37,808 nucleotides of DNA. Origin: Clostridiaceae bacterium. Its GTDB lineage: Bacteria > Bacillota > Clostridia > CAYPLH01 > DUMO01. Under the pieces are notes generated by a model, which saw only the letters and a program-made list of their open reading frames with translations, was not told the origin of the DNA and did no database searches. Each line of letters begins with the position of its first letter. The first letter of the stretch is position 1. Both the position numbers and the translations under genes were made by a program. This document shows positions 93-31,715 of this stretch, in pieces. The stretch covers positions 1-37,808 of the forward strand of contig DUMO01000086.1 of the NCBI GenBank assembly GCA_012839865.1, written 5' to 3'.

Positions 93-1502
93 TCACAGTA
101 ACTCCTGTTTTGAAGACATGTTGACTGAAAAACTTTTTATTAGAGCCCTGCCTTTTTCAATTGAGCTTTTTACAGCTTCCCTTGCCGGCCCTCCAGGTAC
201 TTTTCTACCTGAAACGCAAGCTTCAAGGCTGATGTATTCATATACATCCTCTCCGATTATTTCCGAAAAGGATTTGAGTTCAGCGGGTGTGAGCTCCTCC
301 AATGTCTTTTTGTTATGGGTGCAATACAATACCATTTTGCCGATGACTTCATGGGCTGTTCTAAAGGGCATTCCTTTTTTAACAAGGTAGTCTGCCATAT
401 CCGTTGCATTGGTGAAGCCGCCGCCGGCAGCCTTGTACATGTTCTCCTTCTTGAACCTGATAGTCTTAAGCATGCCTGTAAATACCGGAAGGCACATCTT
501 GACAGTGTCAATTGCATCAAAGACAGCTTCCTTGTCTTCCTGCATGTCTTTATTGTAGGCAAGGGGCAGCCCCTTCATGACAGTCAGCAAGGCAATCAGG
601 CTTCCGTAAACCCTGCCGGTCTTTCCCCTGACCAGTTCGGCTACATCAGGATTCTTTTTCTGGGGCATGATGCTGCTTCCCGTACTGTAAGCATCGTCCA
701 TTTCAATGAAATCGAATTCACCGGAGGACCAGAGAATAAGCTCTGCACTGAATCTGCTAAGGTGCATCATTATGATTGAAAGACATGATGCAAGTTCAAT
801 TGCAAAATCCCTGTCAGAAACCCCGTCCATGCTGTTTTCGGTAATCTGCGAAAAACCCAGCTCTTTAGCGACCATATACCTGTCAAGGGGGTATGTGGTG
901 CCTGCAAGGGCTCCTGAACCAAGAGGCATTATATCGGTTCTTTTGTAGCAGCCGGCAAGCCTGTCCAAGTCCCTTGCAAACATTTGAAAATATGCCATCA
1001 TATGATGGGCAAGGGTCACAGGCTGGGCCCTTTGAAGATGGGTATACCCGGGCATTATGGTATCCAGGTGACTCTCTGACAAGTCAAGCAGGGTTTCCGA
1101 CAATGTACATATCATTTGCGTAATGTTGCATATTTCATCCTTTACGTACATGCGAAAGTCCAGCACCACCTGGTCATTGCGGCTCCTGCCGGTGTGGAGC
1201 TTTCTTCCGGCATCTCCGATTCGCGAAATCAATATTTTTTCAATATTCATGTGAATATCTTCAGCGTCCGGTTCAAATTCCACTTTTCCATCTTCAATGT
1301 CCTTCAGTATATCAAGGAGGGTGTTCTGTATAAGATTTGAATCCTCAGGGTCAATTATTCCTTGATATCCAAGCATACGGACATGGGCAATGCTTCCTAG
1401 TATGTCCTGCTTATACATGCGGCTGTCAAACCTGATAGATGAGTTGAAATCATCTACAGATTTGTCAGTATTCTTTTCAAATCTTCCACCCCATAATTTC
1501 AT
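93..1502 (-). CDS. argH: Argininosuccinate lyase ArgH
   Basis: Splits argininosuccinate into arginine and fumarate, the last step of arginine synthesis in the cytoplasm. The 469-aa product has the family's usual length. The N-terminus begins MKLWGGRFEK, and the fumarase/lyase superfamily signature GSSIMPQKKNPD is present and carries the catalytic serine loop. The TGRSRNDQ and PGYTHLQRAQP blocks are also intact. ATG at 1502 follows an AGAGGTGA ribosome site. The gene lies 147 bp downstream of argG on the same strand with no strong hairpin between them, so the two are probably cotranscribed from the argG promoter. Confidence 0.97.
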   Translation of the reverse strand: MKLWGGRFEKNTDKSVDDFNSSIRFDSRMYKQDILGSIAHVRMLGYQGIIDPEDSNLIQNTLLDILKDIEDGKVEFEPDAEDIHMNIEKILISRIGDAGRKLHTGRSRNDQVVLDFRMYVKDEICNITQMICTLSETLLDLSESHLDTIMPGYTHLQRAQPVTLAHHMMAYFQMFARDLDRLAGCYKRTDIMPLGSGALAGTTYPLDRYMVAKELGFSQITENSMDGVSDRDFAIELASCLSIIMMHLSRFSAELILWSSGEFDFIEMDDAYSTGSSIMPQKKNPDVAELVRGKTGRVYGSLIALLTVMKGLPLAYNKDMQEDKEAVFDAIDTVKMCLPVFTGMLKTIRFKKENMYKAAGGGFTNATDMADYLVKKGMPFRTAHEVIGKMVLYCTHNKKTLEELTPAELKSFSEIIGEDVYEYISLEACVSGRKVPGGPAREAVKSSIEKGRALIKSFSVNMSSKQELL

Positions 1503-1649
1503 ACAAAATCACCTCTTAATTGCAAGAAGATTGCCCCAAACATAGCATGGCTGCAAAGTCAATGCTTTAATAAAAACAGTTGAACAAATTCAGAGTGATG
1601 TCAACATTATTACCATTCAGACAAGTAGACAGGCTTAGCATACATAGAT

Positions 1650-2864
1650 TTATTTGCCCAGTCTTTTCATCATCATGGCCCGTACTTTCACCGGCAGGCC
1701 AAACAGGTTGATAAAGCCTTCGGCATCCTTCTGGTTGTACACTTCATCTTTTCCAAAGGTGGATAGTGATTCATCGTAAAGGGAGTATTCGGATTTTGCA
1801 CCGGCACTGATAATATTCCCCTTGTACAGCTTCAACCGTACGGTACCCGTAACTGTCTCCTGGGTGACGTCTACAAATGCCGAAATAGCTTCTCTTAAAG
1901 GTGTAAACCATTGCCCGTAGTATACCAGCTCGGCAAACTTCTGGGCCACCAGGTCCTTATAGTGGAGTGTATCCCTGTCAAGGCACAAAAGTTCAAGTTC
2001 CCTGTGGGCATAATACAGTATTTGTCCGCCGGGAGTCTCATAAACACCCCTTGATTTCATCCCAACCAAACGGTTTTCAACTATGTCTGCAATACCGATG
2101 CCGTTTTTGGCTCCCAGGTTGTTCAATTTATCGATAATTTCTACCGGACTTAAGCTTTCACCGTTAATATTCAACGGTATCCCCTTCTCAAAGTAAATCT
2201 CCACATATTCCGGCTTGTCGGGGGCTTTTTCAGGCGGTGTAACGATTTTCAGGAGTTTGTCATACTGCGGCTCGTTCCACGGGTTCTCAAGGTCGGAGCC
2301 TTCATGACTCAAGTGCCACAGGTTTCGATCCATGGAATAATTGTCCTTTTTGGTTACCGGAACGGGAATGTTGCGTTTTGCAGCATAATCTATGGCTTCT
2401 TCCCTGGAGCGGATGTTCCATTCACGCCATGGAGCAATTATTTTTAAGTGAGGTGCCAGGGCTTTGGCTGTAAGTTCAAATCTCACCTGATCATTGCCTT
2501 TGCCTGTGCATCCATGGGCTATGGCGGTTGCTCCCTCCAACTGGGCTATTTCCACCAGCCTTTTTGCTATAATGGGCCTTGCGAAGGATGTACCCAGCAG
2601 GTATTTGCCTTCGTAAACAGCACCTGCCTTTAAAGTAGGGAATATATAGCCGGTTACAAACTCTTCCTTTAAATCTTCTATATATATTTTAGCTGCACCC
2701 GATTTAATTGCTTTTTCTTTAAGCGGCGCAAGCTCTTCTCCCTGTCCTACGTCTGCGGCCATGGCAATTACTTCATAATTATAGTTTTCAATGAGCCATG
2801 GTATGATAATGGAAGTATCCAAGCCACCTGAATAGGCCAGGACAACTTTTTCCTTCTTCTGCAT
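1650..2864 (-). CDS. argG: Argininosuccinate synthase ArgG
   Basis: Condenses citrulline and aspartate using ATP to give argininosuccinate. The 404-aa product opens with the PP-loop nucleotide motif AYSGGLDTS (residues 9-17), diagnostic of this ATP pyrophosphatase family. The conserved blocks [23 protein letters not shown] and [12 protein letters not shown] follow. The length is normal and no frame damage is seen. ATG at 2864 has a strong AAGGAGGA ribosome site. A promoter and an ARG-box-like palindrome lie about 135-165 bp upstream, suggesting arginine/ArgR control of the argG-argH pair. Confidence 0.97.
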
Positions 2865-10790: not shown

Positions 10791-11083
10791 CAGTAGGAGA
10801 AAATGAAATGTATGCAAAATAATAACAAATGGCTTTATTTTGTTAGAAAACCAGGTGAGCTGAAGGCAAAAATGCGTGAAAAAAACAGGACGTTTTTTTA
10901 GCTTTTCCGAGCCATGGATGGCGAGTGAAAAGCGGTAGCATTTTTGACTTCAGTGAACCGTCGGTTTCCTCAAAATAAGAGCCTTGTTATTAGAAAAGCT
11001 CGGGGGCATCGAGCCCCGCTTGCTTTTGGCTGGATTTGCTTCGCAAATAGCCCTATTCTGCATACATTTCATTTATGCACTGC
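10791..11083 (+). repeat. Structured interspersed repeat, copy A
   Basis: The 171-bp core (10821-10991) matches copy B (minus strand 30384-30214) at 159 of 171 positions without gaps. Terminal inverted repeats at 10802-10821 and 11054-11073 match at 19/20; weaker pairing extends to about 10791 and 11083. The core has an outer stem (AATAACA with TGTTATT, and TTATTTTG with CAAAATAA). Inside are a 16-bp arm pair with one mismatch (10860-10875 with 10937-10952), an A7C/GT7 hairpin, and a GCTTTTC/GAAAAGC hairpin (10901-10907 with 10927-10933). A 62-bp extension (10992-11053) carries two more small hairpins. No credible ORF is present. Confidence 0.85.
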
Positions 11084-30185: not shown

Positions 30186-30456
30186 CCTGAAATGGATGGA
30201 ATGCAAGCAGAGCAATAACAAGGCTCTTATTTTGATAAAACCGACGGTTCGCTGAAGGCAAAAATGCTACCGCTTTTTACTCGCCCTCCGTGGCTCGAAA
30301 AAGCTAAAAAAACATCCTGTTTTTTACACGCATTTTTGCCTTCATCTCACCTGGTTTTCTAACAAAATAAAGCCATCTGTTATTGCTCTGCTTACATTCC
30401 ATCACAACAGTGAATTGTACAAATCATTGCTCTGCTTACATTTCATCCATTTCAGG
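30186..30456 (-). repeat. Structured interspersed repeat, copy B
   Basis: The core 30214-30384, read on the minus strand, matches copy A (10821-10991) at 159/171 with no gap. Outer terminal inverted repeats at 30186-30216 and 30426-30456 match at 29 of 31. The inner arms here form a perfect 14-bp stem (GAAGGCAAAAATGC with its complement). On the high-coordinate side the terminal sequence is present twice, at 30382-30402 and 30426-30446 (20/21), separated by 23 bp. No open frame of note is present. This copy is inverted relative to copy A. Confidence 0.88.
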
Positions 30457-30608
30457 CTGCACTGTTGAATTAGAGCTTGCTTTCTATGAAATAATATCTT
30501 TGAGCAGAATGAATTAATTTAATCCGGCACCGGGATGCAATTAAATCACCCATACCGGTGGAAAGGCATAATCTATTATTGCAAGTAGAATATTTTGGAG
30601 GTATTTAT

Positions 30609-31715
30609 ATGGTTCAGGGAAAGGTTAAGCGATTATTCCCCGGTGGCAATACAGCCAGAGGGTTTTTCAGTTATTATGATTACATATTGAGCCAGGAGGA
30701 AGCTGACAGGATTATAGTGATAAAAGGCGGCCCCGGAGTCGGCAAATCCACATTAATGAAAAAGGTTGCCGCAGAAATGATTAAAAAGGGCCTGGATGTT
30801 GAACTCATGCACTGTTCCAGTGATCCTGCCAGTCTTGACGGGGTTGTTATTCATAAAGCGGGTACTGCAATAATTGATGGTACCAAACCACATATAGTGG
30901 ATCCCAAAAATCCGGGGGCGGTTGACGAAATCTTGAATCTTGGAGAATTTTGGGACCATGAGGGTGTCAGGAGCAACCGCATAAAAATTTTAAAATGCAA
31001 TAATGAAATTGCCCGTTTTTTTGAAAGAGCCTACAGGTATATCAGAGCTGCTTACGAGATTTACAAAGATTCTGAAGAAATTTATTCACACGCAATGGAC
31101 CATCAAAAAGTAAATAAAATTGCAAACAATATTATGGATAATCTGTTTGCTGACGACAAACCAGGAGACATTCGGGGAAAATGGAGGAAAATGTTCGCAT
31201 CGGCCATAACACCCCAGGGGCTTGTAAATTACCTGCAAACAGTGCTGACCACATCTAAAATTTATAAAATAAAAGGTTTGCAGGGCACCGGAACTGAAAA
31301 ACTGCTGAACAAAATAGCAGCAGCGGCGGTAGAATGCGGTTGCGATGTGGAGTGCTATTATTGCGCCCTGAATCCCGAAAAGCTTGAACATGTTGTTATA
31401 CCGCAAAAGGATGTTTCCTTTACCACTGCCAACTGTTATCATAACGCTGATATAGAAACTTTCGAAGAAATCAACCTGAATGAGTTTATTGACCTTTCAA
31501 TGCTGGATGTCAATGAATCGGATATCGAGTTTAACAATGACCAATTTGACCATTTGCTTGGCAGGGCAATAGAGACAATAAAGAAAGCAAAGGAAAAGCA
31601 TGATGAGCTGGAGCAGTACTATGTACCCAACATGAAATTTGATGAAATTCATAAAAAGACTGATGAGATTATAAAGAAAATATTAAAGTGTGTTGAGCCT
31701 TCCTTTGAAATTTAA
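30609..31715 (+). CDS. Duplicated P-loop ATPase-like protein (PRK06851 type)
   Basis: Start ATG 30609 lies 7 nt after TTGGAGG; 368 aa. The first half has a sound Walker A, GGPGVGKST (40-48). The second half repeats the same pattern from residue 220: IKGLQGTGTEKLLNKIA aligns with IKGGPGVGKSTLMKKVA, and CALNPEKLEHVVIP with CSSDPASLDGVVIH. The second loop lacks the normal GKS/T. So this is an internally duplicated NTPase with a probably inactive second half. I recognise it as a family common in Firmicutes without known function. It diverges from the corrinoid genes across copy B of the repeat. Confidence 0.75.
   Translation: MVQGKVKRLFPGGNTARGFFSYYDYILSQEEADRIIVIKGGPGVGKSTLMKKVAAEMIKKGLDVELMHCSSDPASLDGVVIHKAGTAIIDGTKPHIVDPKNPGAVDEILNLGEFWDHEGVRSNRIKILKCNNEIARFFERAYRYIRAAYEIYKDSEEIYSHAMDHQKVNKIANNIMDNLFADDKPGDIRGKWRKMFASAITPQGLVNYLQTVLTTSKIYKIKGLQGTGTEKLLNKIAAAAVECGCDVECYYCALNPEKLEHVVIPQKDVSFTTANCYHNADIETFEEINLNEFIDLSMLDVNESDIEFNNDQFDHLLGRAIETIKKAKEKHDELEQYYVPNMKFDEIHKKTDEIIKKILKCVEPSFEI

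What the first reader, a model, noticed from the sequence alone, without database searches (positions are those of the whole stretch)
10802..11073. A 171-bp structured repeat present twice in the window, inverted and 19 kb apart
The cores at 10821-10991 (+) and 30214-30384 (-) have identical length, no gaps, and 159/171 identity, although neither is in a gene. Conservation without an ORF points to a mobile palindromic element or a structured RNA family. I cannot name a known family that it belongs to.
Basis: seen in the sequence. Interest (0 to 1): 0.8.

Follow-up and report, generated by a model that had tools for sequence, protein, structure and literature searches.

The report
Dispersed palindromic TwoAYGGAY RNA repeat
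The twin sequences are two of about 40 scattered copies of a small palindromic repeat whose core matches a known bacterial RNA family of unknown function (TwoAYGGAY, proposed to bind the regulator CsrA), so a candidate regulatory RNA has spread through this genome like a miniature mobile element.

Summary
In detail: two 171-bp intergenic cores, gap-free, 159/171 identical, inverted. They are not the only copies. The 2.74-Mb source genome holds about 40 full or partial cores and at least 129 copies of an 18-bp terminal arm, ATGAAATGTATGCAGAAC. Each unit is arm, 171-nt hairpin core, optional 66-nt module, inverted arm. One-ended and internally deleted derivatives are common.

The core is not an unnamed family. 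It matches Rfam RF01731 (TwoAYGGAY RNA) on one strand only. Nine of 20 sibling copies exceed the gathering score; the two window copies fall just below it (42.1 and 41.6 bits against 43). Two apical hairpins carry GGA loops, the feature from which others proposed CsrA binding. The genome has an intact flgL-fliW-csrA-flagellin locus.

Among 291 genomes of the same class, 27 match RF01731. Several hold genome-specific multicopy families. 23 of the 27 encode CsrA, but they equally encode flagellin, so the link is confounded with motility. The outer arms covary strikingly within copies.

Verdict: a MITE-like dispersed repeat that carries a TwoAYGGAY RNA. Transcription, CsrA binding and the mobiliser are untested or unknown.

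The parts
10803..10820 (+). copy 1, left terminal arm ATGAAATGTATGCAAAAT
10821..10991 (+). copy 1, 171-nt core: long hairpin opening into a three-way junction; Rfam RF01731 match at 10828-10985, 42.1 bits, E 1.8e-5
10992..11054 (+). copy 1, optional 3' module, with a G+C hairpin at about 11001-11018 followed by a T-rich tail (terminator-like). 32 matches to this module plus arm in the genome
11055..11072 (-). copy 1, right terminal arm (inverted ATGAAATGTATGCAGAAT)
30214..30384 (-). copy 2, 171-nt core (short form, no module); RF01731 match 41.6 bits
30385..30402 (-). copy 2, 5' terminal arm in element orientation, ATGGAATGTAAGCAGAGC
30196..30213 (+). copy 2, 3' terminal arm, ATGGAATGCAAGCAGAGC read on +
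30429..30446 (-). copy 2, second copy of the arm, ATGAAATGTAAGCAGAGC. Outside it, 30447-30456 is the perfect inverted partner of 30186-30195 (CCTGAAATGG)

Best explanation
This is a non-autonomous, MITE-like dispersed palindromic repeat that carries a TwoAYGGAY-type structured RNA. SHOWN: about 40 full or partial cores and at least 129 terminal arms scattered through one genome; a fixed order of arm, core, optional module, inverted arm; deletion derivatives; an RF01731 match on a single strand; two conserved apical hairpins with GGA loops; and a csrA-fliW-flagellin locus in the same genome. INFERRED: when transcribed from the matching strand, each copy folds into a long hairpin that presents two GGA hairpins. 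A CsrA dimer binds the pair and is thereby titrated by a free transcript, or recruited to a host transcript. Spread would depend on an unidentified transposase acting on the terminal arms, or on hairpin-based replication events. My estimates: about 0.9 for a dispersed repeat family with a TwoAYGGAY-type core, about 0.6 for spread by transposition, about 0.4 for CsrA binding as the function.
For: Copy number and dispersal. The reversed-pattern control for the arm gives 4 hits against 129. Unit anatomy and derivatives. RF01731: 9 of 20 copies at or above 43 bits, best 54.6, one strand only. Consensus structure holds in 97.8% of cells, with 19 pairs changed on both sides against 5.3 in shuffles. 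The first apical hairpin (A..ACAGGAYGU..U) is the best conserved region, with 17 of 25 columns invariant. CsrA with flgL, fliW and flagellin in the same genome. Published proposal that TwoAYGGAY RNAs bind CsrA through two GGA hairpins (PMC4333381). Multicopy, genome-specific TwoAYGGAY families in other Clostridia: about 17 near-complete copies in the complete genome G036, about 14 long copies in G019, and others.
Against: No target-site duplication was found. No transposase gene flanked by these arms was found, and no empty site could be shown. The first loop lacks one base of the AYGGAY consensus, and some copies have lost GGA in the second loop. The CsrA association cannot be separated from motility: within flagellin-positive genomes it is 23/94 against 2/15, p = 0.28. 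No convincing promoter was found in the element. Flanking genes tend to lie antisense to the RNA strand: 25 of 34 downstream genes, p = 0.009. Simple read-through from the upstream gene is therefore not the usual source of the RNA.
Confidence: 0.6

Rival explanations
1. It is a purely selfish MITE- or REP/ERIC-like palindrome. The hairpin matters only as DNA, for example as a transposase substrate, and the RF01731 score reflects shared descent or shape rather than RNA function.
For: Terminal inverted arms, many one-ended and internally deleted derivatives, and a large copy number. Arm double changes are as often transversions as transitions (11 against 10 distinct types counted), as expected of DNA-level correction rather than of G-U intermediates in RNA. 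The excess of G-U over A-C mismatches in the core is not significant (18 to 9).
Against: Only the GGA strand matches RF01731, although both strands are palindromic. The core keeps specific internal loops and mismatches while the arms are kept complementary. TwoAYGGAY cores recur in unrelated genomes of the class.
Confidence: 0.35
2. The copies act in cis as transcription terminators, mRNA stabilisers or RNase substrates at gene ends, like REP/BIME elements.
For: Intergenic placement, very stable hairpins, and a terminator-like hairpin in the long-form module.
Against: There is no consistent gene arrangement: 15 copies have both flanking genes antisense, 8 lie between convergent genes, 5 between divergent genes, 4 between sense genes. 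Short-form copies lack a T-run. Divergent promoter regions, such as that of window copy 2, also hold copies.
Confidence: 0.15
3. The covarying outer arms are held complementary by selection on an RNA stem rather than by DNA template switching.
For: 15 of 17 arm pairs show changes on both sides, and 98% of arm cells pair.
Against: Many double changes are transversions that would pass through a mismatch, and single-arm differences are about as common as shared ones (51 against 52). Inner stems, which should be under the same RNA constraint, seldom show double changes.
Confidence: 0.35

Closest known systems
TwoAYGGAY RNA (Rfam RF01731)
   Same: Two neighbouring apical hairpins with GGA loops on a long multi-stem base; Clostridia; above the gathering score in 9 of 20 copies tested.
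   Different: The first loop is one base short of AYGGAY. The core is enclosed by conserved, covarying terminal arms and repeated about 40 times in one genome. The Rfam entry is typed as cis-regulatory and, in the papers read, is not described as a dispersed repeat.
CsrA-sequestering sRNAs (CsrB, RsmY, RsmZ)
   Same: Paired GGA-loop hairpins, proposed for TwoAYGGAY by Gardner and Eldai 2014 (PMC4333381).
   Different: Known examples come from Gammaproteobacteria and are few loci with many GGA sites each. Here there are many loci with two sites each. CsrA binding is untested.
ERIC/MITE-type bacterial palindromic repeats
   Same: Short, intergenic, palindromic, multicopy, with internal deletions and module variants (ERIC and MITE features recalled from general knowledge).
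   Different: No target duplication, no identified partner transposase, and the core is a recognisable RNA family.
REP/RAYT systems
   Same: Dispersed hairpins; the genome has one Y1 transposase gene.
   Different: That gene is flanked by GGGACGGTT repeats and not by these arms.

Membership tests
TwoAYGGAY RNA (RF01731) | Covariance-model score at or above the curated cut-off of 43 bits | tested here: met
   Met by 9 of 20 copies, best 54.6 bits. The two window copies score 42.1 and 41.6, just below.
TwoAYGGAY RNA (RF01731) | Two apical hairpins whose loops read AYGGAY | tested here: inconclusive
   Second loop AYGGAY or AYGGAG in most copies (AUGGAU in window copy 1, ACGGAG in window copy 2). 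First loop A-GGAY, one base short, with GGA kept.
TwoAYGGAY RNA (RF01731) | Strand-specific match | tested here: met
   Both strands were scanned; only the GGA strand matches.
CsrA-binding (sponge) RNA | A CsrA protein is encoded in the same genome | tested here: met
   CsrA (91 bits, L4 and R44 present) directly after FliW.
CsrA-binding (sponge) RNA | Binds CsrA and relieves repression of its targets | not testable with these tools
   Needs binding and expression assays.
CsrA-binding (sponge) RNA | Occurrence tracks CsrA across genomes independently of motility | tested here: inconclusive
   23/27 genomes and 19/19 genera with TwoAYGGAY have CsrA (p below 1e-8), but 25/27 have flagellin, and within flagellin-positive genomes p = 0.28.
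MITE (non-autonomous DNA transposon) | Terminal inverted repeats and many dispersed copies | tested here: met
   18-bp arms, 129 hits in the genome against 4 for the control.
MITE (non-autonomous DNA transposon) | Target-site duplication | tested here: not met
   No excess of flanking direct repeats over shuffled pairings, at the boundaries used.
MITE (non-autonomous DNA transposon) | Autonomous element with the same ends | tested here: inconclusive
   None among the arm pairs checked. The genome is a draft of 89 contigs and not every transposase family was searched.

The most novel reading that the evidence does not exclude
A mobile, multicopy CsrA decoy. In many motile Clostridia, a selfish palindromic element has captured or evolved a paired CsrA-binding hairpin. 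It has scattered tens of copies per genome, which together form a distributed CsrA sponge or place new transcripts under CsrA control.
Probability: 0.3. Interest if true: 0.82.

Novelty: new variant of a known kind. Interest (0 to 1): 0.6.

Why it matters
TwoAYGGAY was listed in 2010 as a probable RNA of unknown function and in 2014 proposed, without test, as a CsrA-binding sRNA of Clostridia. Finding it as genome-specific dispersed families, nearly always in genomes with csrA and flagellin, makes the proposal testable. It also suggests that a regulatory RNA can spread as a repeat. The within-copy covariation of the outer arms is a warning: in palindromic repeats, arm covariation alone may reflect DNA-level correction and need not prove RNA structure.

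Tried and rejected
Segmental duplication: rejected, flanks not homologous. Only two copies: rejected. Gathering-threshold Rfam scan of the window: empty, because both copies are marginal; lower-threshold and sibling-copy scans resolved it. Matches in plasmids and phages: none. The other genomes of the class searched by DNA: none. Arm pattern in other genomes: only two chance hits, one inside a coding region. Target-site duplication: none. Empty sites among paralogous flanks: none. Autonomous transposon between distant arm pairs: those regions hold ordinary genes. RAYT as mobiliser: its gene has other flanking repeats. G-U excess as proof of RNA strand: not significant once one conserved G-U pair is dropped. 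CsrA co-occurrence as proof of function: confounded with flagella.

Full report
OBSERVATION. The two cores are as described: 171 bp each, no gaps, 159/171 identical, inverted, 19 kb apart and intergenic. Each folds into a very stable hairpin (-111.5 and -103.8 kcal/mol for the stretches folded; z -9.1 and -12.6).

THE REAL UNIT. A search of the source genome (2.74 Mb, 89 contigs, about 100% complete) gives about 40 full or partial cores at 78-95% identity, on many contigs and in both orientations. Nearly every full-length copy is bounded by an inverted arm, consensus ATGAAATGTATGCAGAAC. The arm alone occurs 129 times with up to 3 mismatches, against 4 for the reversed pattern. Long copies carry a further 66-nt module between the core and the right arm; the module with its arm gives 32 matches. 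Window copy 1 (10803-11072) is a long form. Window copy 2 (30196-30402) is a short form whose arm is repeated at 30429-30446, with a further outer palindrome 30186-30195/30447-30456. Around these lie one-ended fragments and internally deleted palindromes of 47-140 bp that keep both arms. The flanks of the two window copies are unrelated.

STRUCTURE AND CONSERVATION. On 24 short-form copies the consensus is a long interrupted stem opening into a three-way junction with two apical hairpins. 97.8% of pair cells form a standard pair; 19 pairs show changes on both sides against 5.3 in shuffles. The covariation is concentrated in the outer arms: 15 of 17 arm pairs vary on both sides, against 4 of the 51 inner pairs. 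Over 43 elements, 52 arm variants are shared by both arms of a copy against 7 expected by shuffling, and 51 occur in one arm only. The distinct double changes in the arms include as many transversions as transitions (counted). The same pattern, arms alike within a copy but different between copies, occurs in two other genomes with TwoAYGGAY families. My inference is that arm-to-arm correction at the DNA level (quasipalindrome template switching, known from general knowledge) is at least as likely a cause as RNA selection.

IDENTITY OF THE CORE. A gathering-threshold Rfam scan of the window is empty. A permissive scan gives one family, RF01731 TwoAYGGAY, clan CL00106, on the + strand of the element: 42.1 bits for window copy 1 (cut-off 43; E 1.8e-5 for 501 bases) and 41.6 for copy 2. 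Of the 20 best copies, 9 reach the cut-off, up to 54.6 bits, and none matches this family on the other strand. The second apical loop reads AUGGAU in window copy 1 and ACGGAG in copy 2. The first reads CAGGAY, one base short of the consensus but with GGA kept.

DISTRIBUTION. In 291 genomes sampled from the class, 27 match RF01731 at E <= 0.001 and 19 reach the cut-off. The tool scored at most nine candidates per genome, so copy numbers are lower bounds. Genome-specific, nearly identical families occur in several genomes: about 17 near-complete copies in the complete genome G036 and about 14 long copies in G019. By DNA similarity this particular family was found in none of the other genomes of the class sampled, nor in plasmids or phages. 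A scan for its arm in the genome collection gave only two chance hits.

LINK TO CsrA. Gardner and Eldai (PMC4333381) proposed that TwoAYGGAY RNAs bind CsrA in Clostridia through two GGA hairpins; Weinberg et al. list the motif as a probable RNA, probably not cis-regulatory and not a riboswitch (PMC2864571). The source genome encodes FlgL-FliW-CsrA in a row, followed by a flagellin hit, with the RNA-binding residues L4 and R44 of CsrA present (the residue roles are from general knowledge). In the 291 genomes, CsrA occurs in 23 of 27 TwoAYGGAY genomes against 94 overall, and in 19 of 19 TwoAYGGAY genera against 63 of 180 (p about 4e-9 and 3e-10). Flagellin gives an equally strong association (25/27), and among flagellin-positive genomes CsrA adds nothing significant (23/94 against 2/15, p = 0.28). 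The four TwoAYGGAY genomes without CsrA are 80-95% complete drafts of one family in which other members have CsrA. The correlation fits the proposal but does not prove it.

GENE CONTEXT. By rough ORF calling, the downstream gene is antisense to the RNA strand in 25 of 34 copies (p = 0.009), and both neighbours are antisense in 15 copies against both sense in 4 (p = 0.019). Read-through from the upstream gene is therefore not the usual source of the RNA. Either copies have their own promoters, which simple scans do not show, or sense insertions are selected against because they would place CsrA sites in mRNAs. This is speculative.

MOBILITY. Sharp ends at unrelated loci, high copy number and deletion derivatives point to spread as a repeat. 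No target duplication, empty site or partner transposase was found. The only Y1-type transposase gene belongs to a different repeat (GGGACGGTT). The mechanism of spread is open.

CONCLUSION. The feature is real and already has a name at the level of its core: TwoAYGGAY RNA. What appears new, in the papers that could be searched, is that this RNA occurs as a dispersed, arm-bounded palindromic repeat with tens of copies per genome in motile Clostridia. The additional files of the 2010 paper were not readable here, so earlier notice of multicopy occurrence cannot be excluded. CsrA titration is the leading functional reading, at roughly 0.4.

Noticed in passing
L160 (G000:C67), gene 1081-1869 (-): A single REP-type Y1 transposase gene is flanked on both sides by AACCGTCCC/GGGACGGTT repeats. 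The same 9-mer recurs beside some elements (L006, L053, L059, L060, L061).
   Followed up: partly
L136-L143 (genome G112): TwoAYGGAY copies with similar cores have much more divergent outer arms that remain near-perfect palindromes within each copy.
   Followed up: partly
L074/L075 and L051/L054/L075: Other dispersed repeats of this genome: 192 bp at 86% identity and about 76 bp at 78-84%.
   Followed up: no
L031 left flank and L038 about 80-131: A 52-bp stretch, 98% identical, adjoins two different copies.
   Followed up: no
L032, L039, L040, L052, L061: The 10-mer CTGTTCAGAC recurs close to elements (6 against about 0.5 expected) and is inverted around L039; it may be an outer arm of an older or larger element.
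   Followed up: partly
L014:1854-1937 and L019:1885-2282: A NiCo riboswitch and a T-box leader (T-box just under its cut-off) lie next to two of the copies.
   Followed up: no
window 30558-31715: A gene with an nSTAND3-type ATPase domain starts about 155 bp from window copy 2.
   Followed up: no
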